Notes under the pieces: model-generated
The model's database searches: none
What the model was told of the DNA's origin: nothing
Seen by the model: the letters and a program-made list of their open reading frames with translations, nothing else
Made by a program: the position numbers and the translations under genes
Part shown: piece by piece, positions 2,526 to 63,758 of the stretch
How the letters are laid out: each line of letters starts with the position of its first letter
Position numbering within the stretch: the stretch's first letter is position 1
From: Cognatundibacterium squillarum
Lineage (GTDB): Bacteria > Pseudomonadota > Gammaproteobacteria > Burkholderiales > Burkholderiaceae_D
NCBI RefSeq assembly: GCF_014652435.1
Contig: NZ_BMYU01000006.1
Location: 186,001 to 250,000, forward strand
Reading direction: 5' to 3'
DNA length: 64,000 nt

Positions 2526-2616
2526 CAGGTCAAATGCGGAGTTTGGCACAGCGATCCGGCGGTCATCGGCAGAAAGTCCGGGCTTCCGGAAATTGCAAAT
2601 GACGATAGCTGCATAA
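2526..2616 (+). repeat. Interspersed intergenic repeat, copy A
   Basis: A clear copy of the roughly 95-bp repeat found seven times in this window. It holds the blocks CAAATGCGGAG, GCACAGCGATCCGGCGGTC, TCGGCAGAAAGTC and TTCCGGAAA in order, and ends in AATGACGATAGCTGCA. It lies between the RND terminator and the end of the oppositely oriented marR gene. No coding function is likely. Confidence 0.8.
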
Positions 2617-2692
2617 TGTGTGCCGGCAAAACCGGAGTTGTCAGTGCCGGAGCGGATGTTCCGGCAGAAAAGAGCAGGGTGGGATGCAGAGA

Positions 2693-3124
2693 TCAGACAG
2701 CGTCGCTCAGATGCTGTTTCAGCTTGATCAGCGCCTGTTCCAGCGTATCGAAATCTTCGTCTGCGTAATCGGTAAAGCGGCGCGCACCGGTGGCAACCAC
2801 TTGCGGGAACACTTCATCAAACAAGCGTTCGCCTTCTGCCGTCAGGCGGATAAATAACTGGCGGCGGTCATCATTGCCGCGTTCACGCTGTATCCAGCCT
2901 TTTTGTTCCAGCCGGTCCAGCACGCCGGTCAGCGTACCTTTGGTAATCAGGGTTTTTTCGCCGAGTTCTTTACAGGTCATGCCGGGCGTATTGCCAAGTG
3001 TCGCGATGATATCGAACTGGGAATGGGTCAGCCCGAACTGGCGCACCGTGCGTGCCGATGCCAGTTCAAACAATTGCATACATTCGGAGAGCAGACGGAT
3101 GCTGCGCAGATAGTTCTTAGCCAT
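2693..3124 (-). CDS. MarR-family transcriptional regulator
   Basis: A 143-residue winged-helix regulator. The helix-turn-helix region reads MTCKELGEKTLITKGTLTG (about 50-68) and is followed by a wing with the family's basic DDRRQLFIRLT segment near residue 85; the terminal helices form the dimer interface. MarR proteins usually repress nearby genes until a phenolic or oxidising ligand binds. It is the last of four leftward genes (cybB, yceI, yceI, marR), so the local operon is the obvious candidate target. The start MAKNYLRS was chosen because it gives a normal family length; the ribosome-binding site is weak. The open frame extends about 59 codons further upstream, but those codons do not look like protein. 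Confidence 0.88.
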   Translation of the reverse strand: MAKNYLRSIRLLSECMQLFELASARTVRQFGLTHSQFDIIATLGNTPGMTCKELGEKTLITKGTLTGVLDRLEQKGWIQRERGNDDRRQLFIRLTAEGERLFDEVFPQVVATGARRFTDYADEDFDTLEQALIKLKQHLSDAV

Positions 3125-3230
3125 AAGGGAGGAATAATCAGGTTTCCGCACCGGGCATGATTTCTGGCCGGCAACTGCGGTGAAGCCCGCATTATACGGA
3201 CAGGGTTGCGTTGCAGCCAGATTGCTTTTT

Positions 3231-3311
3231 TGTGACCAGTGCTGCCTGTGGCAGCAGCCGGTCACAGTTTTGCAGTCGCCGGAAGCCGCATGCAGCGGCA
3301 TCCGGCTTTGC
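3231..3311 (-). other. Two strong hairpins downstream of yceI
   Basis: Just after the leftward yceI stop there are two GC-rich stem-loops. One pairs GCCGGAAGCCGC with GCGGCATCCGGC (3283-3311, one mismatch). The other pairs the TGTGACC and GTGCTGCC arms around a small loop (about 3231-3268). Neither is followed by a U-tract in the leftward transcript, so they look more like mRNA-stabilising or processing structures than intrinsic terminators. Confidence 0.55.
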
Positions 3312-3316
3312 AGGTC

Positions 3317-3889
3317 TTAGTCAACTTTGACGGCTTCAACCTGAATCGACAGACGTACTTCCGGTTTGAAACCGTATTGCAGACCGTAAGTCAGACCGAA
3401 GTCAGCGCGGTTAAATTCTGCAGATGCATCAGCACCGCAGACTTCTTTTTTCAGCATAGGATGCATGATGCACTTGAACTGATTGATTTTCAGTGTCAGT
3501 GGTTTTGTCACGCCCATGAAAGTGAATTCACCGTCAACAGCAACCGGTTTGTCGCCGTCAAAACGGATGTTGCTGCCTTTATATGTAGCGGTAGGGAATT
3601 TTTCAACATTGAACATATCCGCAGATTTCGCGTGATCGTCCATTTTTTTCATGCCGAAGTTCACCGAAGTTGCATCGATCGTGATGTCAACAGTACCGGT
3701 TTTTTTCGCTTTATCCAGCGTGATTTTGCCGCTGGATTTGTCGAACTTACCGCGCCATACAGACAGACCGCCGAAGTGATCTGCTTCAAAGCTTGGGTAA
3801 GTGTGGGTCGGGTCGATAACGTAGTTGTCAGCGAATACCGGTGCAGCAGCGATCAGGGATAAAGCAGCAACGAGTTTTTTTACAGACAT
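3317..3889 (-). CDS. YceI-family periplasmic protein (first copy)
   Basis: A 190-residue secreted lipocalin-like protein. It begins with a signal peptide ([20 protein letters not shown], cleavage expected after residue 20). The mature protein has the YceI start [20 protein letters not shown] and the ending typical of the family. YceI proteins bind polyisoprenoid-type lipids in a beta-barrel; a role in quinone or isoprenoid handling is known for the family and inferred here. It contains a short insertion, [14 protein letters not shown], whose two cysteines could form a disulfide. It follows a second yceI and a cytochrome b561 gene in the same direction, which is a common arrangement. Confidence 0.93.
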
Positions 3890-3923
3890 GAGAAACTCCA
3901 GTGGATTGGTGGGTTGCGTTAAT

Positions 3924-3944
3924 CCCGCCGGATTTTCCGGCGGG
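3924..3944 (-). other. Hairpin in the yceI leader
   Basis: CCCGCCGG (3924-3931) and CCGGCGGG (3937-3944) form a perfect 8-bp stem with a 5-base loop. It lies between the two yceI genes, about 35 bases before the downstream start codon. There is no U-tract, so an attenuating or stabilising role is only a guess. Confidence 0.5.
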
Positions 3945-4013
3945 TATCTTAATAAACAAATTTAATTAAAATTCTGTGAAACGCTGTTTGCAGCGAGCAC
4001 ATTGTGCGCCGGA

Positions 4014-4583
4014 TTAGGGATTCGTCACGATACGGAAGCGGATTACAACTTCATCCGCCACCATGCTGGTATCTTTCCATTCACCTTCGCCAATGTTGTA
4101 GGTCAGGCGTTTGATTGGCAGTGTGCCTTCAAAAATCTGGCTGTTGCCTTCTTTCTTCAGCGTCACCGGAAAGCTGACGGCGGTGGTTTTGCCTTTGATA
4201 GTCAGGTTGCCGCTCACTTCCAGTTTGCCGCCAGCAGCCTGCTTCATGCCGGTGCTGACGAAATTTGCTTTCGGAAACTGCGGTGCGTTAAACCATTCTT
4301 TTTTCTGTACTTCTTTGTTGTACTGCGCATCGCCCAGATCAAAGCTGGCAACATCCAGATCGAAACTGGCTTTGGAGCTGGTGACGGCAGCGGCATTGAA
4401 ATCAATCGCCGCACTGAACTTTTTAAATGTCGCATCGACCGGTACATTCATTTGTTTAAATGTAATGGCGACCTGACTTTTTGCGGTATCGACTTTCAGC
4501 GGTGCAGCCTGTGCCAGCAAAGGCAAACCGGCAGCCATACTCAGGGCGAAAACGGAACGGGTGATGGTTGAGCGGAGTGACAT
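4014..4583 (-). CDS. YceI-family periplasmic protein (second copy)
   Basis: A 189-residue YceI-family protein with a signal peptide ending in LPLLAQA (about residue 26) and a lipocalin-like mature domain starting APLKVDTAKSQVAITFKQMN. It shares the family fold with its downstream neighbour but is clearly diverged from it and lacks that gene's cysteine pair, so the pair is not a recent duplication. It starts 3 bases after the cybB stop, so the two are almost certainly co-transcribed. Like the other copy it probably acts in the periplasm on an isoprenoid ligand, together with the membrane cytochrome. Confidence 0.93.
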   Translation of the reverse strand: MSLRSTITRSVFALSMAAGLPLLAQAAPLKVDTAKSQVAITFKQMNVPVDATFKKFSAAIDFNAAAVTSSKASFDLDVASFDLGDAQYNKEVQKKEWFNAPQFPKANFVSTGMKQAAGGKLEVSGNLTIKGKTTAVSFPVTLKKEGNSQIFEGTLPIKRLTYNIGEGEWKDTSMVADEVVIRFRIVTNP

Positions 4584-4586
4584 GTT

Positions 4587-5135
4587 TTATTCCTTGTCAG
4601 ATTGAGATCCCGGCATCATGCGCAGGAAAATACGGTCTTTATCAATGACCTGATGTTTGATGGCACCGGCGATATGCATCAGCAAAGTCACCAGCATCAG
4701 CTTGGATAACACTTCATGAATTTCTTCCAGCGTGTGTTTCCATTCCGGTTGCGGTGGAAACGGTGCAGGCAGTTCGAACAAGCCCAGATACACAACAGGA
4801 TAGCCAGCGGCATAGGTATGCAGATAACCGGAAACCGGAACGGCGAACATCAGCACATACAAGGCCAGATGCGTACCGGCCGCCAGTTTTTCCTGCCATG
4901 CCGGACCTGCCACCGGTGCCGGTACCTGACTCAGCAAACGGCTGATCAGACGGAAGGCTGCGAGTCCGAGTACGGTAACGCCCAGCCATTTATGCCAGGC
5001 GTAAAACTGCAGTTTGGTCGGACTGATGCGCATATCGGTCATAATGAAACCGAGTGTGAACGCGGCGATGATCAGCAAAGCCATCAGCCAGTGCAAGGCG
5101 ATCATGATGGGGGAATAACGGGAAGGCGTAGCCAT
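4587..5135 (-). CDS. cybB: Cytochrome b561
   Basis: A 182-residue inner-membrane dihaem cytochrome of the bacterial b561 family, which passes electrons between ubiquinol and an acceptor. Four hydrophobic helices are visible. Candidate haem-ligand histidines lie in MIALHWLMA (near residue 15), FYAWHKWLG (near 48) and the last helix (LLMHIAGAIKH). The length fits the family. It is the first gene of the cybB-yceI-yceI-marR group. An imperfect dyad lies just upstream, which may be the operator for the MarR protein encoded at the end of the group. Confidence 0.92.
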   Translation of the reverse strand: MATPSRYSPIMIALHWLMALLIIAAFTLGFIMTDMRISPTKLQFYAWHKWLGVTVLGLAAFRLISRLLSQVPAPVAGPAWQEKLAAGTHLALYVLMFAVPVSGYLHTYAAGYPVVYLGLFELPAPFPPQPEWKHTLEEIHEVLSKLMLVTLLMHIAGAIKHQVIDKDRIFLRMMPGSQSDKE

Positions 5136-5158
5136 ACTATCCTCTGCAAAACAAATAA

Positions 5159-5178
5159 TTGGTTCTGATTAGAACTAA
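5159..5178. promoter_or_regulatory. Candidate MarR-type operator upstream of cybB
   Basis: TTGGTTCT (5159-5166) and AGAACTAA (5171-5178) form an inverted repeat with 7 of 8 matching positions and a 4-base spacer, 24 bases before the cybB start codon. Size and placement fit a MarR-family operator overlapping a promoter. Assigning it to the MarR encoded 2 kb downstream is inference. Confidence 0.5.
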
Positions 5179-5433
5179 TATAGCGCAATTTTAAAAAGTC
5201 TGCACAAGTCCGCTGTATTTTCCGGAAATGCACCAGTACCTGCTGCCGGACGTGGCATTCAGCAATGCTGCACTGATACCGGAAACACAATTCTGCTTAG
5301 GATAGCTGGGAATGCAGGAAGTTCAACAATTTGCCGATAAAGTGGCACAGACCTGCGCGAGTCAGGTTGAGCCAGCATGAAGCGGTATGAGTCAGCGTGG
5401 TTCAGTAAGCCGGCTAAACAGCTTGCAGCAAAT

Positions 5434-5472
5434 AAAAAAGCCAGCCGGTGAAACACAGGCTGGCTTTTTTTT
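5434..5472 (-). terminator. Intrinsic terminator of purB
   Basis: GCCAGCC and GGCTGGC arms around an 11-base loop are flanked by an A-run on one side and a T-run on the other, so it can work in both directions. It lies 15 bases after the leftward purB stop. The remaining bases between the cybB operator and this hairpin (about 5179-5433) hold no gene I can support. Confidence 0.88.
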
Positions 5473-5486
5473 GACGCGGATACAGG

Positions 5487-6995
<1,509 letters not shown>

Positions 6996-7007
6996 TTAGC
7001 ATTCCAG

Positions 7008-7028
7008 TCTGTTCTGTATCGGAACAGA
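7008..7028. promoter_or_regulatory. Inverted repeat in the purB-gst divergent region
   Basis: TCTGTTC (7008-7014) and GAACAGA (7022-7028) are perfect complements with a 7-base spacer, in the 287-base region between the divergent purB and glutathione S-transferase genes. It could be an operator. No regulator can be named from the sequence; the spacing does not fit a LexA box. Confidence 0.35.
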
Positions 7029-7141
7029 TTACGCATCAACTGTATCGTATCGGGTATCACGGGCAGACTTCAGCGGCCTGCTGAAAAGGGATAAAAACAG
7101 GCCGGTGTTATAATCCAGACCAAACTTTTTTGTGAAGCACT

Positions 7142-7753
7142 ATGAAACTGATCGGATCAACAACAAGTCCTTTTGTCCGCAAAGTCCGCGTTGTGATGGC
7201 GGAAAAAAAGCTGGATTACGAATTCGTCCTGGAAAATGTGTGGGCAGCAGAAACACAGATTCAGCACACCAACCCGCTGGGCAAAGTACCGGCGCTGGTC
7301 ATGGAAGACGGTAAAACCATGGTCGATTCACGTGTCATCGTGGAATATCTGGATACGCTGACACCGGTTGGAAAACTGATTCCGGGTCTGGGCCGTGAGC
7401 GTGCCGATGTGAAGTGCTGGGAAGCGATTGCAGACGGCGTGCTGGATGCGGCGATTCTGGTGCGTCTGGAGAAAACCCTGCGCCCTGACGCGCAGCAAAG
7501 CCAGACATGGATAGACCGTCAGATGGGCAAGGTCGATGCCGGTTTGCAGACTTTGTCGGCACAGCTGGGCGACCATCCTTACTACCTCGGTAATCATATG
7601 ACGCTGGCCGATATTGCGGTGGTGTGTACCGTGGGCTGGCTGAGTTTCCGTTTTCCGGAATATGACTGGCGCACGCCATATCCGAATCTGGCGAAGCTGG
7701 CGGATAAACTGTCCGAACGCCCGTCATTCCGCGACACCGTGCCGTTTGCCTGA
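7142..7753 (+). CDS. Glutathione S-transferase
   Basis: A 203-residue cytosolic GST. The thioredoxin-fold N-terminal domain starts MKLIGSTTSPFVRKVRVVMAEK, where the SPF segment carries the likely glutathione-activating serine. It continues with NPLGKVPAL and the DSRVIVEYLD glutathione-binding segment near residue 65. The C-terminal helical domain contains the family's N-capping motif region MTLADIAVVCTVGWL. The substrate is unknown; proteins of this type are often labelled YibF-like. It is a single-gene unit divergent from purB. Confidence 0.92.
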   Translation: MKLIGSTTSPFVRKVRVVMAEKKLDYEFVLENVWAAETQIQHTNPLGKVPALVMEDGKTMVDSRVIVEYLDTLTPVGKLIPGLGRERADVKCWEAIADGVLDAAILVRLEKTLRPDAQQSQTWIDRQMGKVDAGLQTLSAQLGDHPYYLGNHMTLADIAVVCTVGWLSFRFPEYDWRTPYPNLAKLADKLSERPSFRDTVPFA

Positions 7754-7771
7754 ACCGCATGCCAATAACTG

Positions 7772-7801
7772 AAAATGGACGCCGCGGCGTCCATTTTTTT
7801 T
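7772..7801 (+). terminator. Intrinsic terminator of the GST gene
   Basis: A perfect 20-base palindrome centred on 7784/7785 (arms ATGGACGC and GCGTCCAT) is followed by eight T residues. It separates the GST gene from the convergent bfr and may serve both. Confidence 0.88.
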
Positions 7802-7827
7802 GGTATTCCGAGCAGTGACTGCGCGGC

Positions 7828-8304: not shown

Positions 8305-8444
8305 ACGGCTTCCTTTCTGCATGGTTCAGGTGAAATCCGCTTCATCATAGCAGTTGCGCTGTTGCATCGCTACCGCGCTGCAACAGGCAGTGAACGGGAC
8401 GCGCGGGCAGCAGCGACAGTGCCGGTGCAGCGGATGTTGTAATG

Positions 8445-8492
8445 AGAAAAAATAAAACGGGATGTGGCCGGTGCTTGCCGGTCCGCATCCCG
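8445..8492 (-). terminator. Intrinsic terminator of the hemP-bfd-tonB operon
   Basis: A long stem pairs CGGGATG with CATCCCG and, inside it, CCGG with CCGG. In the leftward transcript it is followed by a T-rich tail (TTTTATTTTTT). It lies just downstream of tonB. Confidence 0.85.
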
Positions 8493-8519
8493 CAAAGGGT
8501 AAGTCAGTGAATTGCTGGT

Positions 8520-9445: not shown

Positions 9446-9458
9446 GGTTTCCTCTTGG

Positions 9459-9782: not shown

Positions 9783-9860
9783 GTTCACACTCCTTCAAAG
9801 ACGCGGTGTCTGACTGGCTGAGAGGGGGAGACTCTCCGGCTGGCGACCCGTGGAACGCTG

Positions 9861-10088: not shown

Positions 10089-10442
10089 AGATTATTGTGT
10101 ATATTTCTTTTTTTGGCAAGCGTTTTTCTCGGTTTACTGCTGAAAATTTGTGCGGGATCAGATAGCCGGTACGGCAAGAACAGTCGCCCGCCTGCAGACT
10201 TAGGTTCAGTCCGCCGGATTCGCTGCGCAGCAAGGGAAAAAATACCGCCTGTAATGACCGGGACCAGCGGAGGTGGCTGACCGGTTTTTGCGCGTTTGCG
10301 TCTGCCGGTTTGCCGGCGATTCCGCCGGTGCGCTTGTTAGGCGGTGGCATTGATGGGGTAAGCGGGAAGCGGCCTGCGGAAGCGGTGAAGAATGGCAAAA
10401 AATGGCAAAAAATGAGAAAAATGATGCCGATTTCGCTAAAAA

Positions 10443-10459
10443 ATACCCCCTGGGGGTAT
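10443..10459. promoter_or_regulatory. Perfect GC-box palindrome, CsoR-like
   Basis: ATACCCCCTGGGGGTAT is a perfect 8-1-8 palindrome in the 705-base stretch between hemP and psd. Operators of the CsoR/RcnR metal- or sulfur-sensing family have this shape (TACCC...GGGTA around a short centre). No such regulator or target gene is visible within the window, so the site is orphaned. Confidence 0.4.
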
Positions 10460-10466
10460 GTGCCTG

Positions 10467-10498
10467 CAGGCCAGACTTTCTGCCGACAATCAGCGCAC
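10467..10498 (-). repeat. Interspersed repeat, copy B (decayed)
   Basis: Only the central block survives: CCAGACTTTCTGCCGAC, the reverse complement of the repeat core, followed by a degraded CAGCGCAC. It lies 8 bases from the CsoR-like palindrome. The rest of 10100-10750 shows no supportable gene. Confidence 0.55.
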
Positions 10499-10754
10499 GG
10501 GGAGGGGGAGTATCTGTTTTTGAGATGAAATGACGCTGATTTAAACAGCTAATGGCGGTAAAAGTGCATCGTAATCAGTCTTAGCGCAGGCTTCATACAG
10601 GCAAGCCACGCAGTCAGTGCACAGCTGGTGTACGCGGTCAGGTATCTTTTCAGAGGTTTGCGCAGATGCTGATGCAGCAGCATGCGGCGAAGCAGATTGA
10701 GAGGTGTGCAGCAGACAGGCGCGGCGACGCAGGCCGCCAGCGCCGTGCGGAAGA

Positions 10755-28249: not shown

Positions 28250-28275
28250 ATCCTTGTGATGATCAGCCGGCGATT

Positions 28276-28380
28276 GTGCAGCGATCGTCATCAGGCAATC
28301 ACGGAGGCCCGGATTTTCTGCCGACGACAGCGCAGCTGCTGTGCAGAACACCGCATTTGAGGCATTTTTGGCCTGTTTTG
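28276..28380 (-). repeat. Interspersed repeat, copy D
   Basis: Read leftward it shows AATGCCTCAAATGCGGTG, TTCTGCACAGC, TCGTCGGCAGAAAATCCGGG and GATGACGATCGCTGCA in the family order, with a changed middle block. It lies just after the regulator stop codon, and is the one clear copy in minus orientation. Confidence 0.75.
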
Positions 28381-28432
28381 CGCTGTCAGCCGGCTGCAGG
28401 ACGGATCAGCGCAGGCATCAAAGCAGGTGACG

Positions 28433-28701
28433 AGAACTCATTTCATAAATAGCCACGAGTGCGAACGCGAGGTGCCGGGATGCAGTGCGCGGCGTCGTTG
28501 CGCAGCACAGGCTGGTGCCTGTGCAAGCGACGCAACAAAGCAATGCGCCCGGCACCTCCGTTCCCGGAGGGTTTGTCTCATAGCGCACGCTGGACAGCGT
28601 TGGACGCGTTGTGAATAGCACCGCTATTCACTGCCTTGTCCGCCTTGCCAGCCCGCGCTATGAGACAAACGCATCTCGCGGATATTTATGAAATGAGTTC
28701 T
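28433..28701. mobile_element. MITE-like element with terminal inverted repeats and nested hairpins
   Basis: A 269-base element without a coding frame. Its ends are perfect 19-bp inverted repeats, AGAACTCATTTCATAAATA (28433-28451) against 28683-28701; the similarity continues imperfectly for another ten bases (GCCACGAG against the complement of CTCGCGGA). Inside are two independent foldbacks: GAGGTGCCGGG/CCCGGCACCTC (28469-28558) around a GCACAGGC/GCCTGTGC hairpin, and a 16-bp perfect pair GTTTGTCTCATAGCGC (28571-28586 with 28655-28670) around a GTGAATAGC/GCTATTCAC hairpin. This is the shape of a non-autonomous IS derivative. AAGCAG occurs near both ends (28421-28426 and 28702-28707) but does not touch the left end, so a target duplication is unclear. 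Confidence 0.75.
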
Positions 28702-39928: not shown

Positions 39929-39989
39929 TTTTCTGCGACAGAAATTGCAGGCGGCAACTCAGAACTGATTCGGGATGCCGCTGCGCCCC

Positions 39990-40085
39990 TCAAAATGCCT
40001 CAAATGCGGTGTTCTGCATAGCGATCCGGCGGTCGTCGGCAGAAAGTCTGGTCGTCCGGAAAAGCGAAATGACGAATATTGCACA
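39990..40085 (+). repeat. Interspersed repeat, copy E
   Basis: A complete copy: AAAATGCCTCAAATGCGGTG, TTCTGCATAGCGATCCGGCG, GTCGTCGGCAGAAAGTCTGG, TCGTCCGGAAAAGCGAAATG, then ACGAATATTGCAC. It lies between two terminators of convergent genes. Confidence 0.85.
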
Positions 40086-40116
40086 TTACTGTTGTCATCC
40101 GACTTTATTCGTTGAA

Positions 40117-50562: not shown

Positions 50563-50617
50563 GTTTTCAGGGGGAGCCGCAGTCTGACCGACTGCTTTTT
50601 TGGGGAAATTAGGTCTT

Positions 50618-53600
50618 ATGAATACCACTACATCCTTATCCGGATGGCGTTCTGCCTGTGCTGCAGCGCTGCTGATCGGCCTGCTGGCCGGTAACTGGAC
50701 ACCGGAGGCACATGCGCGCAGTCTGGCTGCTGAAGCCAGCATCGCAGCACCTGTGCCTTCGACAGCAAAAAAAGTGATCACCCATGATGTGTATGCAAAC
50801 TGGCGCTCGGTGCAGGGCACTGTGGTGTCGCGTGATGGTCAGTGGGCTGCATGGGCGCAGTCTTCGCCGGACGCGGATGGTGAACTGGTGGTGCGTAACC
50901 TGAACGATCAGCGCGAAATCCGTGTGCCGCGTGGTGAAAAACCGGTATTCAGTCAGGATGGTAAATTCGTGGCATTCAGCGTGCGTCCGCTGAAAGCTGA
51001 TCTGGACAAAGCACGTAAAGAAAAGAAAAAACCGGAAGACAGCCCGAAAGCCGGAGCCGGTCTGCTGAATCTGGCAAGCGGTAAAACCGAATTACTGGAA
51101 CGCGTCAAACAATTTGCATGGCCTCAGGAAGGTCCGGCCATACTGGCAGTGCTGATGGAAGCAGCGGAAGCGAAGAAAGAAGAAAAAAAACCGGAAGCAG
51201 CCAAAGATGAGGACGACGATCAGGCGCGTCCCGCAGCAGCGGCCGCAGCCGGTGCACGTAAAAAAGATGCCGGTAATGAATTCATTCTGTGGCATGCCGC
51301 CGATGGCAAGCGCGAAAAATATCAGGATGTAACGGATTTCGCGTGGGCGAAAAACGGTGGATTGCTGGCGCTGAATATCAAAACAACGCCGAAAGAAGCA
51401 CCGAAAGAAGCACCGAAAGAAGCACCGAAAGAAGCCGCGAAAGAAGCGAAGAAAGACGAAAAAAATACCAAAGCGGAAGCGACTGCCGATGCTAAACCGG
51501 CCGCAGAAAGTGCACCGGCAAAAGCAGCAGAAGTCAGCCGTGACGGTGTCTGGATCATCGTGCCGGGCAGTGCAGCTGTGCAGGTATTCAAAGGCGCTGG
51601 CGTAACCAAGCATCTGGTCGCTGACGAAAAAGGAACGCAGATTGCCTTCCTCAGCAGCCGCGAAGATTTCCAGCGCAAACAGGCGGAAAAAGCAGCGAAG
51701 AAAGCAGAAAAATCTGAAAAATCCGATAAGCCTGCAGATGCTGCAGCGGAAAAAGAAGACCCTGCCGTATTTGATTTGTATCACTGGCAGCGCGACAGCA
51801 AAACCGATGCAGTGATTGCCGTGAATGCCGCAACTGCCGGTATGCCAGCAGGCTGGGGCGTCAGCGAATTTGCTGAGCCTGGTTTCAGTGAAGACGGTGC
51901 CCGTCTGTTCTTCGGTACCGCTGCGTTACCGAAAGCAGAACCGAAAGATGCGCCGGAGCCGGTGAAAGTGGACCTTTGGCACTGGAAAGACCCGGAGCTG
52001 CAATCAGTACAGAAAATCCGTGCTGATAAAGATAAACAAAAAAATTACCGCGCTGTTTTCCATCTGGCAGACAAACGTTTTGTGCAGTTAGGCACTGCAG
52101 AAATTCCGTCGGTGCTGGTGAATGAAAACGCCGGTTATGCACTGGGTGTCAGCGATGTGCCATACAAGCAACTGTTGTCTTGGGATGGTTCTTATCGTGA
52201 TTATTATGCGATTGATCTGAAAACCGGTCAGTCGAAAAAGCTGGCGGAAAAACAGCGCGCTTTCCCTAGCTTATCGCCATCCGGCCAGTACGTTCTTGGA
52301 TTTGATGTGAATACCTATCAGTGGAATGCATGGCGTACCAGCGATGGTCAGCGTATAGACCTGACCAGCAAAACCCGCGCCCGTTTCCATGATCATGAAC
52401 ACGATACGCCGGAACCGCGTTCTGCTTACGGCTATGCAGGCTGGACAGCGAACGACCGCAGCGTCGTTTTGTATGACCGTTACGACCTGTGGGAAATCGA
52501 ACCGCAAACCGGCAAAGCAGTGAATCTGACCGCCGGTGCAGGTCAGAAGGCGCAAACCCGCCTGCGTTATGTGAATCTGGAAAATAACCGTAACGAGCCG
52601 ATGGATGATGGCCCGGTAGTCGACAGCAAAGCGCTGCCGGCGATGCCGTGGATGTTGTCTGCGCTGGCAGATAAAGATTTATCCACCGGTTTGTACCAGT
52701 TGACCGCAGCCGGAAAAGAGCCGCGTAAGCTGGTGCAGGACGCGCACTTGTACAGCAGCCTGATTAAAGCGAAAAATGCAGACCGTGTTTTATTCGCACG
52801 TCAGTCGTTCACAGAATTCCCGAATCTGTGGAGTACCGATCTGAATCTGAATACACCGAAACAGATTTCTGATGTGAATCCGCAGCAGAAAGAATACAAC
52901 TGGGGTACGCAGGAACTGATCGAATACACCACAACCGATGGTCGCAAACTGCGTGCGTTGCTGGCGAAACCGGAGAATTTTGATCCGGCGAAGAAGTACC
53001 CGATGATGGTCTACATCTATGAAAAGATGACGGACAATCTGCATCTGCATGTACCGCCCGGCCCGAGCCAGAACATCAACGTCACCCGTTACCTGAGCAA
53101 TGGCTATGTGGTGCTGCGTCCTGATATTACTTACACCACCGGCCATCCGGGGCAGAGTGCGCTGAAGGCCGTGACTGGCGCGGTGAATAAAGTCGTGGGC
53201 ATGGGCTTTGTCGATGCGAAGCGTATCGGTATTCAGGGTCACAGCTGGGGCGCGTATCAGATCAATTACCTGATCACGCAAACCAATATGTTCCGCGCAG
53301 CGGAAGCCGGTGCATCGATGGCAAACATGACCAGTGGTTACGGTGGTATCCGCTGGGGTGCCGGTGTCAGCCGTGCCTTCCAGTATGAAACCGGCCAGAG
53401 CCGTATGGGTGGCACACCATGGAATAAGACGAAAGAATATATTGAGAATTCGCCGCTGTTCCATATCGACAAAGTGCAGACGCCGTGGCTGACCAAGCAC
53501 AATGATGAAGACGATGCAGTGCCGTGGTATCAGGCGATTGAATTCTTCACTGCCTTGCGCCGTCTGAACAAAGAAGCTTACTGGTTCAACTACAACGGTG

Positions 53601-53857
53601 AAAAACACGGCTTGCGTGACCGTGAAAACGTCAAGCATTACACCGTGCACATGGCAGAGTTCTTCGATCACTTCCTGCTCGGCAAACCGCGTCCGGAGTG
53701 GATGGAGAAACCGACTCCGTATCTGGAACGCGGCAAGCGTGATGTGACACCGCTTTTTAAACCGGCGCTGAAAAAAGCCAGTGATCCGACGGTGGAAAAA
53801 GCAGCGACAACATCTGCAGAAAAAACACCAGCAGCAACACAAAAAGCGGCAGAATAA
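50618..53857 (+). CDS. Large secreted prolyl-oligopeptidase-type (S9) peptidase
   Basis: A 1079-residue exported serine peptidase. It has a signal peptide (residues about 1-34, ending near AHARS), a long beta-propeller (about 50-750) and a C-terminal alpha/beta hydrolase with the nucleophile in GHSWGAYQINYLI (near 890), aspartate in HNDEDDAVPW and histidine in NGEKHGLRD. The propeller carries an unusual lysine/glutamate/alanine-rich insert with five tandem KEAP-type 12-bp repeats (51389-51448). It is longer than usual for the family. Substrate peptides are unknown. Confidence 0.9.
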   Translation: MNTTTSLSGWRSACAAALLIGLLAGNWTPEAHARSLAAEASIAAPVPSTAKKVITHDVYANWRSVQGTVVSRDGQWAAWAQSSPDADGELVVRNLNDQREIRVPRGEKPVFSQDGKFVAFSVRPLKADLDKARKEKKKPEDSPKAGAGLLNLASGKTELLERVKQFAWPQEGPAILAVLMEAAEAKKEEKKPEAAKDEDDDQARPAAAAAAGARKKDAGNEFILWHAADGKREKYQDVTDFAWAKNGGLLALNIKTTPKEAPKEAPKEAPKEAAKEAKKDEKNTKAEATADAKPAAESAPAKAAEVSRDGVWIIVPGSAAVQVFKGAGVTKHLVADEKGTQIAFLSSREDFQRKQAEKAAKKAEKSEKSDKPADAAAEKEDPAVFDLYHWQRDSKTDAVIAVNAATAGMPAGWGVSEFAEPGFSEDGARLFFGTAALPKAEPKDAPEPVKVDLWHWKDPELQSVQKIRADKDKQKNYRAVFHLADKRFVQLGTAEIPSVLVNENAGYALGVSDVPYKQLLSWDGSYRDYYAIDLKTGQSKKLAEKQRAFPSLSPSGQYVLGFDVNTYQWNAWRTSDGQRIDLTSKTRARFHDHEHDTPEPRSAYGYAGWTANDRSVVLYDRYDLWEIEPQTGKAVNLTAGAGQKAQTRLRYVNLENNRNEPMDDGPVVDSKALPAMPWMLSALADKDLSTGLYQLTAAGKEPRKLVQDAHLYSSLIKAKNADRVLFARQSFTEFPNLWSTDLNLNTPKQISDVNPQQKEYNWGTQELIEYTTTDGRKLRALLAKPENFDPAKKYPMMVYIYEKMTDNLHLHVPPGPSQNINVTRYLSNGYVVLRPDITYTTGHPGQSALKAVTGAVNKVVGMGFVDAKRIGIQGHSWGAYQINYLITQTNMFRAAEAGASMANMTSGYGGIRWGAGVSRAFQYETGQSRMGGTPWNKTKEYIENSPLFHIDKVQTPWLTKHNDEDDAVPWYQAIEFFTALRRLNKEAYWFNYNGEKHGLRDRENVKHYTVHMAEFFDHFLLGKPRPEWMEKPTPYLERGKRDVTPLFKPALKKASDPTVEKAATTSAEKTPAATQKAAE
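51389..51448 (+). repeat. In-frame 12-bp tandem repeats in the S9 peptidase gene
   Basis: Three identical copies of CCGAAAGAAGCA are followed by two near copies, giving the repeated tetrapeptide P-K-E-A. The unit length is a multiple of three, so changes in copy number would keep the frame. Confidence 0.85.
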
Positions 53858-55029: not shown

Positions 55030-55135
55030 ATTCCGGCTCCTGAAATGGATAAACACAGACGAGGCAGCGTAATCAGAAGATGCTGAAAAGTAAAGATGTT
55101 CGCGGATGAGTGCTCAGAAACGGCTCAGAGGCACT

Positions 55136-55230
55136 GAAAATGCCTCAAATGCGGAGTTCAGCACAGCGATCCGGCGGTCGTCGGCAGAAAGTCTGGTCGT
55201 CCGGAAATGGCAGATGCGGATATTGGCACA
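55136..55230 (+). repeat. Interspersed repeat, copy F
   Basis: A near-perfect copy: AAAATGCCTCAAATGCGGAG, TTCAGCACAGCGATCCGGCG, GTCGTCGGCAGAAAGTCTGG, TCGTCCGGAAATGGCAGATG. It lies between the GNAT start and the leucine-dehydrogenase terminator, the only clear copy between two genes in the same direction. Confidence 0.85.
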
Positions 55231-55274
55231 GAGAAGATAATTTCGGTGTGTCTTGCGCACTCGGCACACCAGAC

Positions 55275-57229: not shown

Positions 57230-57462
57230 CCGTACCAACGACGATCCAAAAGAAAGGTCGCGAAGGGTACAAGAGTTTGCGCTCACTGGCAAGTAGTTGC
57301 CCGAAAGGCGCGTTGACATATGGCAGAAATGCAAACGATACTTGCAGGAATTTGCCGGATTTAACGACAAATGGAACTAGTCTGCGCGAATTTTGTCTCA
57401 GCCCGTTTGTATTTTCCCCGCCTTACCCCGGCTTTGCAGCTGTTTTTACCGGAGAAATTCTT

Positions 57463-58656: not shown

Positions 58657-58658
58657 TC

Positions 58659-61600
58659 ATGTTCCTTTCCGATTTCAGTATTAAACGTCCGGTGGCGATG
58701 ATTGTGATCATCATCGCCCTGATGGCATTTGGCTTACTGGCGCTGAAAAAACTCAAGGTCAACCAGATTCCGGATGTCGAACAACCGCTGCTGGTAGTGA
58801 ATGTGCCGTATCCGGGCGCATCGCCGGAAACAGTTGAACGCGAAATCATCAACCGGATTGAAAAATCGCTGCAAAGCATTTCCGGTGTTGACCGCCTGAC
58901 TTCGACTGCCAGTGAAGGCAATGCCAGCATCCTGATTTTCTTTAACTTCAAGAAAAACATGGTGGAAGCGGCGGACGAGGTACGCAATTCGATTGCGGCG
59001 GTTCGCTATAAATTACCGGTGGAAATGCGCGAGCCTGTGCTGCAGCGGATTGATCCGTCGGCGCAACCGATTATGCAGCTGGCTTTATCCGCCAGTCAGC
59101 AAACCCATGCGGAAATTTCGCGGATTGCAGAAGATGAATTGTCGGATAAATTCCGTGGCATTGACGGCGTGGCGACAGTCACGGTCAACGGTTCGCTGAA
59201 GCGTGAACTCAGCATCCTGATCAGTTCGCAAAAACTGCGCGAATTCAATGTGTCGGTTGCAGAAGTCGTGGCAGCAGTACGCGCGCAAAACACCACCGCG
59301 CCGGTCGGTAAAGTCAAAGGTGAGTTGCGTGAACAGAATATTCGTCTGATCGGCCGCATCGGTTCGCCGGCGGAATTTCAGTCCATCGTGATTAAGCGTC
59401 GCGGCAATGAAATCGTGCGTCTGGCGCAGGTCGCAGAAATTCAGGATGGCTTTGCAGAGCTTGGCGGTTACAGCATGCGCAACGGCAATCCTAACGTCGG
59501 TATTTCCATCACCCGTTCGCGTGATGCAAGTACGGTGTCGGTAGCGAAAAAAGTACGTGAGCTGGTGGCGGAAATCAATAAAACCCTGCCACAGGGAACC
59601 AAACTGGAAGTGACGCAGGATGGCGGTAAGGATGCGGAAAGCAGTCTGAACAACGTCATTGAATCGCTGATCTTCGGTGCGGTACTGACGATTTTTGTGG
59701 TGTATGTATTCCTGAACAGCTGGCGCTCCACACTGATTACGGCGCTGAGTCTGCCAACGTCGGTGATTGCAGCGTTTATCGCGATCTGGCTGTGCGGCTT
59801 CACGCTGAACTTCATGACCTTGCTGGGTTTATCGCTGGCGATTGGTGTGCTGATTGATGATGCGATTGTGGTGCGTGAAAACATTGTGCGCCATATGGAG
59901 ATGGGCAAAGACCGCCGTACTGCGGCTTCTGAAGGAACGCAGGAAATCGGTCTGGCAGTGGCGGCGACCACATTCTCGATTGTGGCAGTGTTCATTCCGG
60001 TGGCGTTTATGCCGGGTGTGTCGGGTGAATGGTTCCGTCCGTTTGCGCTGACGGTGGCGACTTCGGTGCTGGTCAGTCTGTTTATTTCCTTCACACTGGA
60101 CCCGATGCTGTCTGCGTACTGGGGTGATCCGCCGGGACATCATCATGCGCCGAAAAAAGGCATCAGCCTGGCACTCAGCCGCTTCAATGACTGGTTCGAT
60201 CATCAGGCCGACCGTTATGGCCGCGTGATTGCGTGGGCTTTACATCACCGTAAATCGATGGGTGCCATCGCGGTGGCATCGCTGGTCGGTGCGCTGGTAT
60301 TGCATGCTTATAAGGGCGGTTCTTCCTTCCTGCCGACGGCAGACAACGGCACGATTTTCGTGGACATCCGTACGCCGCCGAGTTCCAGTCTGGCATATTC
60401 GCGTCTGAAAGTGGCGAAAGCCGCGGAGCTGGCGCAAACCCTGCCGGAGACGAAAGCCACCAATGCCACCGTGAATATCAATGGCGGCCGTGTGTATGTG
60501 GATATCGGCAAGAGTACCCAGCGTAAGCGTTCTGCGCAGGAAGTCGCGGTTGAACTGCGTCAGCGCGTCAGCACGTTAATCGGTGCGGAATATGTGGTGC
60601 AGGATGACCTGAACAATGGCGGAGGCAAGCCGGTGCAGATTCAGTTCTCCGGCCCGGATGCGCGCCGCTTGCTGGAGCTGACCAATGAATTCATGGATAA
60701 GCTGCGTCAGGTACCGGGTGCGGTGGATATCGGTTTGTCGGAACAGGCACCGAAAGATGAATTGCAGATCGAGTTAGACCGTGGTCTGGCGAATAATCTG
60801 GGCATTTCCGCCAATGATGCAGCGCAGGCCTTGCGTGTGGCATTCGCCGGTGTGGAAGTCGGCGACTGGGTGGACCCGACTGGTGAAACCCGCGATGTCG
60901 CGGTACGTCTGCAACCTTCCGACCGCGTCAGCCTGAGCAATATCGAATCCCTGCCAGTCACCGTGACCGGCAGTGACAGGCTGGTGCCGCTGGAACAAAT
61001 CGCACGCATCACTATGGGTAAAGGCCCGTCGCAGATTCAGCACTATGACGGTAAACGTATGGTGTCGGTATCTGCGAATGCGCAGGGACGTTCTGCCGGT
61101 GAAGTAACGGCGGATGCGCTGAAGATCGCGAAAGCAATGAGCTTCCCGGCCGGTTATGCACTGGAGCTGGGCGGTGCTGCGCGTAATCAGAAAGAGTTGT
61201 TCACCGAAATGCTGATCGCGCTGATCATGGGTATCGGTCTGATGTATCTGATTCTGGTCATGCAGTTCGGCTCATTCACTGCGCCAATGCCGGTGATGGT
61301 ATCGCTGCCGCTGAGTCTGATCGGTGTGGTGCTGGCGCTGATACTGACCAATGGCACGCTGAACCTGATGAGCTTTATCGGCATCATCATGCTGATGGGG
61401 CTGGTTGCGAAAAATGCGATTCTGTTGCTGGATTGCGCGCGCGAACTGGAACGTGAAGGCATGGATCGCGAAGATGCGCTGATGATGGCGGGCCGCAAGC
61501 GTCTGCGTCCGATTCTGATGACGACATTCGCGCTGATTGCAGGTATGCTGCCGGTCGCGCTGGGGCTGGGTGAGGGCGGTGAATTCTATCGTCCGCTGGC

Positions 61601-61856
61601 GATTGCGATTATCGGCGGCACCATCACTTCCACGTTACTGACTTTGCTGGTCGTGCCGACGTTCTACGATGGTGTGGAAATTGCGCGCGACCGCATGATC
61701 GCCAAATTCCATCGTCGTGAACAACGCTGGAATACCGGTGTTGCCTTTGTGCTGACCGGACTGGAAGTACTGGCAACGCTGACTTTACTGCGTTTCCTGT
61801 GGCGTTTGCCACGCAGCATTTTCAGAGCGGTGACCGGTCGCAGACAGGCATCCTGA
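58659..61856 (+). CDS. RND multidrug efflux permease
   Basis: A full-length 1065-residue pump with 12 membrane helices and two large periplasmic loops. The N-terminus MFLSDFSIKRPVAMIVIIIA, the TM4 proton-relay motif IGVLIDDAIVVRENIVRHME and the porter-domain repeats are intact; the last 40 residues form a basic tail beyond the usual end. It is paired with the adaptor upstream, but no outer-membrane channel gene follows, so it must borrow a TolC-type channel from elsewhere. Confidence 0.95.
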   Translation: MFLSDFSIKRPVAMIVIIIALMAFGLLALKKLKVNQIPDVEQPLLVVNVPYPGASPETVEREIINRIEKSLQSISGVDRLTSTASEGNASILIFFNFKKNMVEAADEVRNSIAAVRYKLPVEMREPVLQRIDPSAQPIMQLALSASQQTHAEISRIAEDELSDKFRGIDGVATVTVNGSLKRELSILISSQKLREFNVSVAEVVAAVRAQNTTAPVGKVKGELREQNIRLIGRIGSPAEFQSIVIKRRGNEIVRLAQVAEIQDGFAELGGYSMRNGNPNVGISITRSRDASTVSVAKKVRELVAEINKTLPQGTKLEVTQDGGKDAESSLNNVIESLIFGAVLTIFVVYVFLNSWRSTLITALSLPTSVIAAFIAIWLCGFTLNFMTLLGLSLAIGVLIDDAIVVRENIVRHMEMGKDRRTAASEGTQEIGLAVAATTFSIVAVFIPVAFMPGVSGEWFRPFALTVATSVLVSLFISFTLDPMLSAYWGDPPGHHHAPKKGISLALSRFNDWFDHQADRYGRVIAWALHHRKSMGAIAVASLVGALVLHAYKGGSSFLPTADNGTIFVDIRTPPSSSLAYSRLKVAKAAELAQTLPETKATNATVNINGGRVYVDIGKSTQRKRSAQEVAVELRQRVSTLIGAEYVVQDDLNNGGGKPVQIQFSGPDARRLLELTNEFMDKLRQVPGAVDIGLSEQAPKDELQIELDRGLANNLGISANDAAQALRVAFAGVEVGDWVDPTGETRDVAVRLQPSDRVSLSNIESLPVTVTGSDRLVPLEQIARITMGKGPSQIQHYDGKRMVSVSANAQGRSAGEVTADALKIAKAMSFPAGYALELGGAARNQKELFTEMLIALIMGIGLMYLILVMQFGSFTAPMPVMVSLPLSLIGVVLALILTNGTLNLMSFIGIIMLMGLVAKNAILLLDCARELEREGMDREDALMMAGRKRLRPILMTTFALIAGMLPVALGLGEGGEFYRPLAIAIIGGTITSTLLTLLVVPTFYDGVEIARDRMIAKFHRREQRWNTGVAFVLTGLEVLATLTLLRFLWRLPRSIFRAVTGRRQAS

Positions 61857-61951
61857 AAGACAAACCGGCTGTAGGGGCAGCCGGTTTGACGTAACGCCGG
61901 ACAGCATTATGCAGGTCCGGAAAAAATAAAATGTTTAACTCGGAGAGACAG

Positions 61952-63493
61952 ATGACAGACACCACTGGGCAGACCAAGCCTAAGATGCCGGGACAGATCC
62001 CGTACATTATTGCGAACGAAGGGTGTGAGCGCTTCAGCTTTTACGGCATGCGCAATATCCTGACACCGTTCCTGATCACCAGCCTTTTATTGTCGATTCC
62101 TGAGCATTTACGCGCAGCGATGGCAAAAGAAGTGTTCCACACCTTCGTGATCGGCGTGTATTTCTTCCCGCTGCTGGGTGGCTGGTTGTCTGACCGTTTC
62201 TTCGGTAAGTACAACACCGTTTTCTGGCTGAGTCTGGTGTACTGCTGCGGCCATGCCTGTCTGGCGATTTTTGAAAATAATATCAACGGGTTTTATTTCG
62301 GCTTATTCCTGATTGCACTCGGTTCCGGCGGTATTAAACCACTGGTGTCATCGTTTGTCGGCGATCAGTTCGATAAGAGCAACCGCAGTCTGGCGCAAAA
62401 AGTGTTTGATGCGTTCTACTGGATCATCAACTTCGGTTCCTTCTTTGCATCGCTGCTGATGCCGATTTTCCTGAAGAAATTCGGTGCCAGCGTCGCCTTC
62501 GGTATTCCGGGCATCCTGATGTTCATTGCGACGGTGATTTTCTGGTCCGGCCGTAAAAAATATGTACACGTACCGATTTCCGCGAAGAATCCGCATTCTT
62601 TCCTGAACGTGGTGCGTACCGCTTTGTTTGATCATAAAGGTGCCGGTACCGGTATCGCTGTGATCGGTATGATCGCGGCAGTCGCTTCGCTGACGCTGAT
62701 TCCTGCGATCGGTATCGTGGCGTCATTCTGTCTGGCGCTGGTACTGGTGCTGGGCTTCGGTGGTATCGGTGCCTGGATGCAGCTGGAAACAGCGCGCGGC
62801 ATCCATCCTGATGAAGCCGTGGACGGCGTGCGTTCCGTGCTGCGTATTCTGGTGGTGTTTGCGCTGGTGACACCGTTCTGGTCCCTGTTTGATCAGAAAG
62901 CATCGACCTGGGTATTGCAGGCAGATGCAATGACCAAACCGGAGTGGTTCCAGTCTGCGCAAATGCAGGCGCTGAATCCGGCGCTGGTGATGATTCTGAT
63001 CCCGTTCAATAACCTGATTCTGTTCCCGCTGTTCAAAAAACTGGGTATCGAACTGACTGCGCTGCGCCGCATGGGTCTGGGCATTGCCTTCTCCGGTCTG
63101 GCATGGATTGTGGTTGGCTTTATGCAGCTGGCGATTGACGGCGGCGATGCCATCTCCATCGTCTGGCAAATTCTGCCATACGCCTTGCTGACGTTCGGTG
63201 AAGTGCTGGTATCGGCAACGGGTCTGGAGTTCGCATACAGCCAGGCACCACTGGCGATGAAAGGCGTGATCATGAGTTTCTGGAACCTGTCTGTGACCAT
63301 CGGTAACCTGTGGGTGCTGCTGTCGAACTCCAGCGTGAAGAGCCCGGCAGTGACCGAGCAAATCAAGCAGACTGGCATCAGCGTGACCGCATTCCAGATG
63401 TTCTTCTTTGCAGGCTTCGCGCTGCTGGCAGCTTTCCTGTTTGCCCTGTACGCACGTACCTACAAAATGCAAAACAATTACCGTTCAGCCTGA
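61952..63493 (+). CDS. POT/PTR-family peptide transporter
   Basis: A 513-residue proton-coupled di-/tripeptide symporter of the POT family in the major facilitator superfamily. The family motifs are visible: GCERFSFYGMRNILTPFL in TM1 (ExxERFxYYG type), FFPLLGGWLSDRFFGKY and FDAFYWIINFGSFFASLLMP (PTR2 signature). About 12-14 helices. The start MTDTTGQTKPK follows GGAGAG; an upstream ATG seven codons earlier is less likely. Confidence 0.95.
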   Translation: MTDTTGQTKPKMPGQIPYIIANEGCERFSFYGMRNILTPFLITSLLLSIPEHLRAAMAKEVFHTFVIGVYFFPLLGGWLSDRFFGKYNTVFWLSLVYCCGHACLAIFENNINGFYFGLFLIALGSGGIKPLVSSFVGDQFDKSNRSLAQKVFDAFYWIINFGSFFASLLMPIFLKKFGASVAFGIPGILMFIATVIFWSGRKKYVHVPISAKNPHSFLNVVRTALFDHKGAGTGIAVIGMIAAVASLTLIPAIGIVASFCLALVLVLGFGGIGAWMQLETARGIHPDEAVDGVRSVLRILVVFALVTPFWSLFDQKASTWVLQADAMTKPEWFQSAQMQALNPALVMILIPFNNLILFPLFKKLGIELTALRRMGLGIAFSGLAWIVVGFMQLAIDGGDAISIVWQILPYALLTFGEVLVSATGLEFAYSQAPLAMKGVIMSFWNLSVTIGNLWVLLSNSSVKSPAVTEQIKQTGISVTAFQMFFFAGFALLAAFLFALYARTYKMQNNYRSA

Positions 63494-63543
63494 GTACCGG
63501 CTGCTGCGGCAAAGGCTGATACAGCCCGCCGCTGACGGAAAAC

Positions 63544-63577
63544 AAAAACGCTGCCCTGACCGGCAGCGTTTTTTTAT
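63544..63577 (+). terminator. Intrinsic terminator of the peptide transporter
   Basis: AAACGCTGCC and GGCAGCGTTT arms around CTGACC, followed by a T-run, about 50 bases after the stop. Confidence 0.9.
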
Positions 63578-63663
63578 GGCGACTGACTTCGACAGATACT
63601 GTGTCATCACATGCAGTCTGCGTAAGAGGCCGGTACAGCGTCCGCAAAGCCGTTTTTTTGCCC

Positions 63664-63758
63664 GAAAATGCCTCAAATGCGGAGTCCGGCACAGCGATCC
63701 GGCGGTCGTCGGCAGAAAGTCTGGGCCTCCGGAAAATGGAAATGACGATCTCTGCATA
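63664..63758 (+). repeat. Interspersed repeat, copy G
   Basis: A complete copy: GAAAATGCCTCAAATGCGGA, GTCCGGCACAGCGATCCGGC, GGTCGTCGGCAGAAAGTCTG, GGCCTCCGGAAAATGGAAAT, then GACGATCTCTGCA. It lies between the transporter terminator and that of the convergent phosphatase gene. Confidence 0.85.

What the first reader, a model, noticed from the sequence alone, without database searches (positions are those of the whole stretch)
2526..63758. A family of about 95-bp interspersed intergenic repeats
Seen: five clear copies (2526, 28276 reversed, 39990, 55136, 63664) and two decayed ones (10467 reversed, 25114). All share, in order, AAATGCCTCAAATGCGG, GCACAGCGATCCGGCGGTC, TCGGCAGAAAGTC, CCGGAAA and ATGACGAT-TCTGCA. 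They are always intergenic, mostly between convergent genes, and often next to an intrinsic terminator. The core contains TCCGG...CCGGA, so it can fold. Seven copies in 64 kb implies hundreds per genome. This could be a non-autonomous mobile repeat, a binding site for a chromosome-organising protein, or a 3'-end RNA element. I do not recognise it as a named family.
Basis: partly seen in the sequence, partly recalled or inferred. Interest (0 to 1): 0.75.

Follow-up and report, generated by a model that had tools for sequence, protein, structure and literature searches.

The report
Phased DNA repeat between convergent genes
A bacterium related to Undibacterium carries several hundred copies of a roughly 100-base DNA element, mostly where two genes end face to face, whose regular spacing suggests that proteins wrap or bend it; what binds it and how it spread are unknown.

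Summary
The repeats are real and genome-wide. Five window copies are one class (S). The 25114 copy belongs to a longer class (L); the 10467 copy is a hybrid with a sister family's ends. Contig C1 (995 kb) holds 103 copies, extrapolating to about 400-430 per genome. S copies carry two end motifs in direct repeat, exactly 65 bp apart (80 of 80 scored); L copies 84-87 bp (12 of 13), about two helical turns more. Upstream lies an arm of interchangeable AAA/TTT tracts every 10.25-10.5 bp. No base-pair covariation and no orientation preference to genes: the element works as duplex DNA rather than RNA. Of 102 copies with scored context, 58 lie between convergent genes. Of 42 congeners only three hold clear copies (2-3 each), but many hold a related family (R33) with a similar core and other ends. 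R33 copies are shared at 16 of 16 sites between two species and constrained at consensus positions. Best reading: a lineage-specific, protein-wrapped chromosomal site, spread by rare insertion and then kept, comparable to gyrase-binding BIMEs. The mobile-repeat reading stays close behind. Binding protein and copying enzyme are unidentified.

The parts
2503..2618 (+). Class S copy, between an RND permease gene (+) and a MarR-like gene (-), convergent
   Evidence: (107.0 bits)
10433..10516 (-). Hybrid copy: R33-type ends (GATACTCCCCC ... ATACCCCCAGGGGGTAT) around the R core TGTCGGCAGAAAGTCTGG; tandem gap
   Evidence: core only, 13.5 bits; R33 model 10.7 bits
25110..25234 (+). Class L copy (end motifs about two helical turns further apart), convergent gap
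   Evidence: (95.9 bits with a profile that includes this copy in its seed)
28272..28385 (-). Class S copy, convergent gap; a 269-bp inverted-repeat element starts about 50 bp away
   Evidence: (86.7 bits)
39987..40088 (+). Class S copy, convergent gap
   Evidence: (105.4 bits)
55122..55232 (+). Class S copy, convergent gap
   Evidence: (108.4 bits)
63646..63760 (+). Class S copy downstream of a peptide-symporter gene (61931-63493); absent from the same gene pair in 5 sister species
   Evidence: (117.2 bits)
63623..63674 (+). Upstream arm of the 63664 copy: region where, across the family, AAA/TTT tracts alternate with GC every 10.25-10.5 bp
63675..63694 (+). End motif M1, consensus AAATGCGGnnTTCnGCACAG
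63707..63727 (+). Core, consensus CGTCGGCAGAAAGTCYGGGCC; shared in degenerate form with the R33 family
63740..63760 (+). End motif M2, consensus AAATGACGATnTYTGCACAAT or an AAATGCGGA variant; sharp 3' edge

Best explanation
Each element is a duplex-DNA nucleoprotein site. SHOWN: two similar end motifs sit at fixed distances on either side of a conserved core; an upstream arm of A/T tracts is phased with the helix; there is no sign of RNA structure and no fixed orientation to genes; copies sit mostly beside the 3' ends of genes; related copies in two sister species stay at the same loci and are constrained at consensus positions. INFERRED: dimeric proteins bind the end motifs and the core, the phased arm is wrapped or bent, and the resulting complex acts on DNA topology or domain structure where converging transcription piles up positive supercoils, as proposed for gyrase-binding BIME-2 elements and strong gyrase sites. 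The elements reached their loci by rare copying insertions of unknown mechanism, separately in each lineage, with end motifs that differ between lineages while the core stays recognisable. Gyrase itself as the wrapping protein is a guess (about 0.25 on its own).
For: A/T tracts upstream of M1 at -1 (M1's own AAA), -12, -22, -32, near background at -42 and -52; best period 10.25 bp, 0 of 2000 shuffles and, for class S, 0 of 1000 block shuffles as strong. AAA and TTT interchange (positions 3-4: AA in 81, TT in 17 of 101 copies). M1-M2 distance 65 bp in 80 of 80 scored S copies and 84-87 in 12 of 13 scored L copies; 16 of 109 copies could not be scored; the added length is about one turn in each linker. 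In G033, left and right dyads lie 62-63.5 bp apart in 27 of 28 copies whichever half-site is kept (19 and 8). The top 25 mutual-information pairs are all within 5 positions; covariation equals shuffles. 58 of 102 copies convergent and 6 divergent, against 80 and 107 of 395 intergenic gaps of at least 100 bp (gaps with a copy are lengthened by it); tandem 18/18 by orientation; 54 of 116 convergent junctions of C1 hold a copy. R33 copies in G027 and G033: 16 of 16 sites shared; substitutions 7/382 at conserved columns, 49/647 middle, 49/250 variable. E. coli gyrase motif: 130 bp with 10.75-bp GC phasing, cleavage sites enriched downstream of highly transcribed operons and in BIME-2 (PMC6379681, abstract and passages read).
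Against: Gyrase preference is degenerate, so it does not explain 20-base end motifs nearly invariant in sequence. In class S the 3' side is not phased at 10.5 bp (inside M1-M2 the best period is 8.25) and the whole S element is only borderline (44 of 1000 block shuffles as strong). Distribution is patchy: 400 kb of sister G011 has no region with at least 4 repeat partners, so the site is not generally needed. Constraint was measured on R33, not on the window's own family, for which no close relative is held; 12 of the 16 pairs were picked from top-scoring matches (the 4 unpicked pairs: 3/94 vs 22/221, P = 0.04), over all columns the elements are only as conserved as coding DNA (0.927 vs 0.919), and gene conversion among copies could mimic constraint. 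R33 in G033 is not strongly convergent (5 of 28). No binding protein was identified.
Confidence: 0.42

Rival explanations
1. A non-autonomous mobile repeat (transposon or recombinase substrate). End motifs and arm are binding sites of an unidentified transposase or recombinase supplied in trans; copies have no host function and lie at gene ends because insertions elsewhere are harmful.
For: Hundreds of copies in one species, few or none in sisters; absent at the DtpT site in the 5 of 7 sister loci read that have the same gene pair; R sites in G000 and R33 sites in G033 share only 2 of 176 junctions, suggesting that both spread after the split; sharp 3' edge; close neighbours alike and in the same orientation.
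Against: No terminal inverted repeats; no autonomous copy seen in the flanks compared (partial); no gain or loss between G027 and G033 at the 16 sites examined; substitution rates follow column conservation; the one Y1 transposase gene found in G000 has no copy in the 4 kb around it.
Confidence: 0.35
2. A recombination site that bounds gene cassettes (integron-like in effect): modules with a copy at each end are gained at, and lost from, existing copies, leaving single copies as scars.
For: Neighbours under 4 kb apart: 26 direct vs 5 inverted (P = 2e-4), 35 vs 29 at 4-20 kb; 22 direct neighbour pairs more alike than random pairs (median 0.82 vs 0.73, P = 6.5e-6); 8 of 11 junctions that are at least 700 bp longer than in G033 carry copies, e.g. 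4 direct copies around 3 modules where G033 has 188 bp; in G062 vs G001 and G011 the left similarity ends within 2 bp of the 3' edge of copy 1.
Against: Accessory DNA and repeats may share permissive gaps; most copies are single; attC features not found; local segmental duplication can make alike direct pairs (one pair flanks what look like duplicated collagenase genes; two pairs share 46-79 bp of flank); the integrase next to one copy gives no match at E <= 1e-10 in six species with 10-99 R33 matches; the right boundary in the sister loci does not coincide with copy 2.
Confidence: 0.13
3. A DNA uptake or self-recognition signal with species 'dialects'.
For: End motifs differ between lineages while the core stays; M1 recalls the Haemophilus uptake core (from memory).
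Against: The full motifs do not occur outside the 97-125 bp element in C1, which avoids coding DNA; known uptake signals are short (recalled).
Confidence: 0.05
4. A transcribed 3'-end RNA element or terminator.
For: 3' gene ends; folds of -26.8 to -32.8 kcal/mol for five copies.
Against: No strand preference, no covariation, no Rfam match, no terminator association.
Confidence: 0.03

Closest known systems
BIME-2 / strong gyrase sites (E. coli, phage Mu)
   Same: Intergenic or downstream of transcription units, helically phased A/T-G/C pattern over roughly 130-150 bp (PMC6379681 abstract and passages).
   Different: Strictly conserved, lineage-specific end motifs at fixed distance; no REP palindromes; gyrase binding untested.
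REP / REPIN-RAYT repeats
   Same: Many intergenic copies in unidirectional and convergent gaps, some families species-specific (PMC3733652 abstract; PMC3116915 passages).
   Different: No GTAG or CGTC tagged palindrome seen; main repeats direct, not inverted; no copy around the only Y1_Tnp gene found.
ERIC (RU-1; name recalled) and other enterobacterial small mobile repeats
   Same: About 100-170 bp, intergenic, many copies (PMC2759123, abstract start in search listing).
   Different: Phased arm and spacing classes; no covarying hairpin. No sequence comparison with ERIC was run.
Integron attC sites
   Same: Can flank gene modules in direct orientation.
   Different: No GTTRRRY-type boxes seen (motif recalled), no covarying imperfect hairpin, dispersed mostly single copies.

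Membership tests
MITE | Terminal inverted repeats | tested here: not met
   End motifs are direct repeats
MITE | Target-site duplication | tested here: inconclusive
   Empty sites exist but intergenic DNA is too diverged (78-79% identity even within a gene); 5' edge gradual
MITE | Autonomous partner with the same ends | tested here: inconclusive
   Only tyrosine recombinases and Y1 transposases were sought; the 70 longest of 298 flank similarities show no shared larger element carrying a copy
REP/REPIN | 20-40 bp palindrome with GTAG or CGTC tag, inverted pairs | tested here: not met
   By inspection of the consensus; definition from PMC3733652 abstract
REP/REPIN | Repeats beside a RAYT gene | tested here: not met
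   L311, 4 kb around the only Y1_Tnp gene found in G000: no repeat hit better than E 1.1
BIME-2 / strong gyrase site | About 130 bp with 10-11 bp phased GC variation | tested here: inconclusive
   Upstream arm phased at 10.25-10.5 bp; class L whole element 10.5 (4 of 1000 block shuffles as strong); class S whole element 44 of 1000 and its 3' side not phased
BIME-2 / strong gyrase site | Gyrase cleavage or binding in vivo | not testable with these tools
   No data held
Integron attC | Imperfect hairpin with conserved pairing | tested here: not met
   Covariation 0.078 vs 0.077 shuffled on 31 copies; fold z -1.85 to +0.20 as RNA, -1.31 to +1.07 as DNA
Integron attC | Integron integrase in the genome | not tested
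   7 tyrosine recombinase matches found; none scanned with an IntI model
DNA uptake sequence | Short motif abundant on its own, also in genes | tested here: not met
   0 matches outside elements for the full M1 and M2 patterns in C1; the 8-mer AAATGCGG alone occurs 88 times outside
Rfam RNA family | Match at gathering score in the window, or E <= 1 for the 63664 copy | tested here: not met

The most novel reading that the evidence does not exclude
Undibacterium and some relatives carry a superfamily of three-site, helically phased chromosomal elements: a conserved core between two operator-like end motifs that come in lineage-specific 'dialects'. It spreads like a repeat but is then held in place by selection as a chromosome-wide set of 100-400 wrapping or topology sites, a chromosome-organising system that propagates as a repeat.
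Probability: 0.25. Interest if true: 0.82.

Novelty: new variant of a known kind. Interest (0 to 1): 0.6.

Why it matters
Bacterial interspersed repeats are usually explained as hairpin RNAs or selfish hairpins. This superfamily shows duplex-DNA design rules instead (spacing quantised by helical turns, interchangeable half-sites, a phased arm) and combines lineage-specific occupancy with position-specific constraint. The pair G027/G033 with the R33 family makes 'selfish or functional?' directly testable, and nearly half of the convergent gene pairs in the examined contig (54 of 116) carry a copy.

Tried and rejected
RNA element: rejected by lack of strand preference and covariation. attC: rejected as a member. 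RAYT: one Y1_Tnp gene found in G000, no copies beside it; Y1_Tnp present in G002-G004 with 0, 1 and 0 R33 matches. Tyrosine integrase + KfrA_N gene pair about 25 bp from a copy (C1 247661-249902): attractive because both proteins diverge fast (integrase 47-56%, KfrA 34-42% to the closest congeners; median of syntenic proteins 76% to G033), but G020, G035, G014, G017, G005 and G019 have 10-99 R33 matches and no integrase match at E <= 1e-10 (G017 and G019 are incomplete genomes, G005 is 9% contaminated). In-situ replacement of R33 by R ends: shared junctions 2 of 176, P = 0.26. Replication-strand orientation: no consistent relation to GC skew across C1 by inspection. Tandem gene duplication as general cause of direct pairs: 18 of 22 pairs show no similarity between module and neighbours, 2 weak protein similarity, 2 short flank duplications. 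Promoter reading of the R33 core: -10 box not conserved (inspection). Exact insertion borders: not resolvable. Phage, plasmid and IMG/VR searches: no match. Sequence words in papers: 259 papers hold at least one of four words; 20 were listed, none of them holds either of the two longer words, and none was opened.

Rows dropped before counts: copies under 25 bits; one copy at the contig end without a flanking gene; 16 of 109 copies without an M1 or M2 regex match; neighbour pairs with a copy under 60 bits in the similarity test; one 54-bp L distance, probably a regex artefact, is kept among the 13.
Full report
WHAT WAS CHECKED. The window is G000:C6:186001-250000 of a 4.19 Mb genome in 20 contigs. 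Its peptide symporter is closest to Undibacterium proteins, up to 85%, and 42 congeners are in the held set; I infer an unnamed Undibacterium or near relative. Thirty copies were fetched and aligned without gaps, a sequence-only model R1 was built from 31, and contig C1 (995,374 bp) was read in full.

NUMBER AND CLASSES. nhmmer finds 97 C1 hits at E < 1e-5. After adding a second profile, 103 copies of at least 25 bits remain in C1 (89 S, 14 L) and 6 in the window (5 S, 1 L). The L class has the same end motifs and a related core, but longer, A/T-tract linkers. A two-motif pattern finds 73 matches (39+/34-) in two span classes, 83 and 103-105 bases; the reversed control pattern finds none.

ANATOMY. 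From 5' to 3': an arm with A/T trinucleotides at -1 (the AAA of M1), -12, -22, -32 (near background at -42, -52), best period 10.25-10.5 bp over 93 copies, 0 of 2000 shuffles as strong; for class S alone 0 of 1000 block shuffles, for class L 1 of 1000; AAA and TTT replace each other as blocks; motif M1 AAATGCGGnnTTCnGCACAG; core CGTCGGCAGAAAGTCYGGGCC; motif M2 AAATGACGATnTYTGCACAAT or its AAATGCGGA variant; then information falls to near zero at +98. M1 and M2 are direct repeats, each a partial dyad (TGCnG....CnGCA). M1-M2 start distance: 65 in 80 of 80 scored S copies; 84-87 in 12 of 13 scored L copies. Mutual information over 101 unique copies is confined to close positions in the top 25 pairs; a nested fold suggested by one copy shows no more covariation than shuffles. 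The full motif and core patterns do not occur outside elements in C1, taking as elements all profile hits at E <= 1 with 30 bp added.

CONTEXT. With an own hexamer-based gene caller (735 genes, 82% coding), 58 of 102 copies lie between convergent genes, 36 tandem (18 in each orientation), 6 divergent, 2 over called genes (both weak copies); the 395 gaps of at least 100 bp split 80/208/107. 54 of 116 convergent junctions hold at least one copy, and terminators are not enriched there. Spacing in C1: mean 9.7 kb, CV 0.79.

EMPTY SITES AND SISTERS. Of seven sister loci read next to the symporter gene, five have the same gene pair as at the 63664 copy, each with a short gap and no repeat. Against 795 kb of sister G033, 16 of 176 conserved junctions carry R copies in G000; the five single-copy junctions without extra genes are 145-259 bp longer than in G033. 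R1 at E <= 0.01 matches 8 of 43 genomes of the genus, G000 included: clear copies in G001 (3), G011 (2), G062 (3, plus one weak), and one match of 18-22 bits each in G005, G063, G064, G066 (strict filters). None of 249 other genomes of the order, drawn evenly, matches the two-motif pattern.

A SISTER FAMILY. De novo repeat search in G033 reveals its own dispersed element, R33: ends ATACT-S6-AGTAT and GGGGAGTAT or ATACTCCCC, core TGTCnGCnnAAAnnnnGGGC, recognisably like the core of R and L. S6 may be CCCCCC, GGGGGG or CCGGGG. In 27 of 28 copies the left and right dyad centres are 62-63.5 bp apart, whether the GGGAGTAT half (19) or the ATACTCCC half (8) of the left site is kept. In two other organisms the core reads as a perfect dyad, TGTCCAT-N7-ATGGACA and TGTCCA-N9-TGGACA (L322, L048). 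R and R33 occupy different junctions (2 shared of 176, P = 0.26), which suggests lineage-specific insertion.

CONSTRAINT. G027 and G033 are 92% identical over a 58.8-kb alignment. All four R33 copies in 100 kb of G027 and the 12 chosen elsewhere have a G033 copy at the same site: 16 of 16. Over all columns elements are only as conserved as coding DNA (0.927 vs 0.919; intergenic 0.879). But substitutions are 1.8% (7/382) at the most conserved columns, 7.6% (49/647) at middle and 19.6% (49/250) at variable ones, P = 1e-14 for the extremes; given a consensus base in G027, 0.8%, 3.2%, 10.8%. Twelve pairs were chosen among top matches, which favours consensus bases in G027; the four unchosen pairs give 3.2%, 7.5%, 16.7% (P = 0.04 for highest vs rest). 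Gene conversion is not excluded.

NEIGHBOURING COPIES. Copies less than 4 kb apart are mostly in the same orientation (26 vs 5; 35 vs 29 at 4-20 kb) and more alike than random pairs. Of 11 junctions at least 700 bp longer than in G033, 8 carry copies. Genes bracketed by close copies include GNAT, HD-CE, NACHT and T6SS-immunity-like proteins; of these only the immunity-like one lies in a junction that was compared with G033. In the sister loci of G001, G011 and G062 two copies bracket different cargo, and similarity to G062 ends within 2 bp of the 3' edge of copy 1. This fits cassette-like gain, local duplication, or shared permissive sites; I could not separate them.

INTERPRETATION. Phasing, quantised linker lengths and half-site behaviour speak for a protein-DNA complex; lineage-specific occupancy speaks for spread by insertion; shared loci and column-dependent substitution in R33 speak for retention. 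The nearest known behaviour is gyrase at strong sites and BIME-2: its 130-bp motif has 10.75-bp GC phasing, its cleavage sites are enriched downstream of highly transcribed operons and in BIME-2 (PMC6379681, abstract and passages; PMC12393610, a preprint, passages). The strictly conserved end motifs go beyond a gyrase preference, so another, lineage-specific DNA-binding protein is likely; it was not found.

LITERATURE. Not found described: searches (listings only) showed nothing on such repeats in Undibacterium. Most papers of subscription journals are not in that library.

Noticed in passing
window 28433-28701: A 269-bp element with 27-bp inverted ends (93% complementary, AGAACTCATTTCATAAATAGCCACGAG); two more copies (about 97% identical) lie beside other R copies (L013, L020): looks like a recently active MITE.
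   Followed up: partly
window about 50600-53857: Large reading frame (1085 aa, residues 690-1026 match dipeptidyl-peptidase models) with a Lys/Ala/Glu-rich stretch of 12-base repeats around 51000-51950.
   Followed up: no
L148:7661-9902 (C1 247661-249902): Tyrosine integrase and KfrA_N gene, divergent; a pair found in many congeners that evolves unusually fast.
   Followed up: partly
L131, L132, L133 (G001, G011, G062): Same locus with different cargo (PT-HINT frame in G001) between two repeat copies.
   Followed up: partly
G033 C9 about 275-279 kb (L236): CRISPR-like array with repeat TTTCTAAGCTGCCTGTGCGGCAGTGAAC.
   Followed up: no
L048:3424-3486 and L054:5594-5676: R33-type elements (18.3 and 54.1 bits) 177 and 37 bp after the same peptide-symporter gene in two other organisms, the gene that precedes the 63664 copy here.
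   Followed up: no
L312 (G000 C13 33500-40000): Two adjacent collagenase-like genes (by inspection, no family search) with two closely similar R copies: gene and repeat probably duplicated together.
   Followed up: partly
C1 123877-125844, 387047-389176, 389166-390041: AAA-ATPase, NACHT and RelA/SpoT-like genes (possible defence genes by inspection; only the NACHT gene was scanned) bracketed by R copies.
   Followed up: partly
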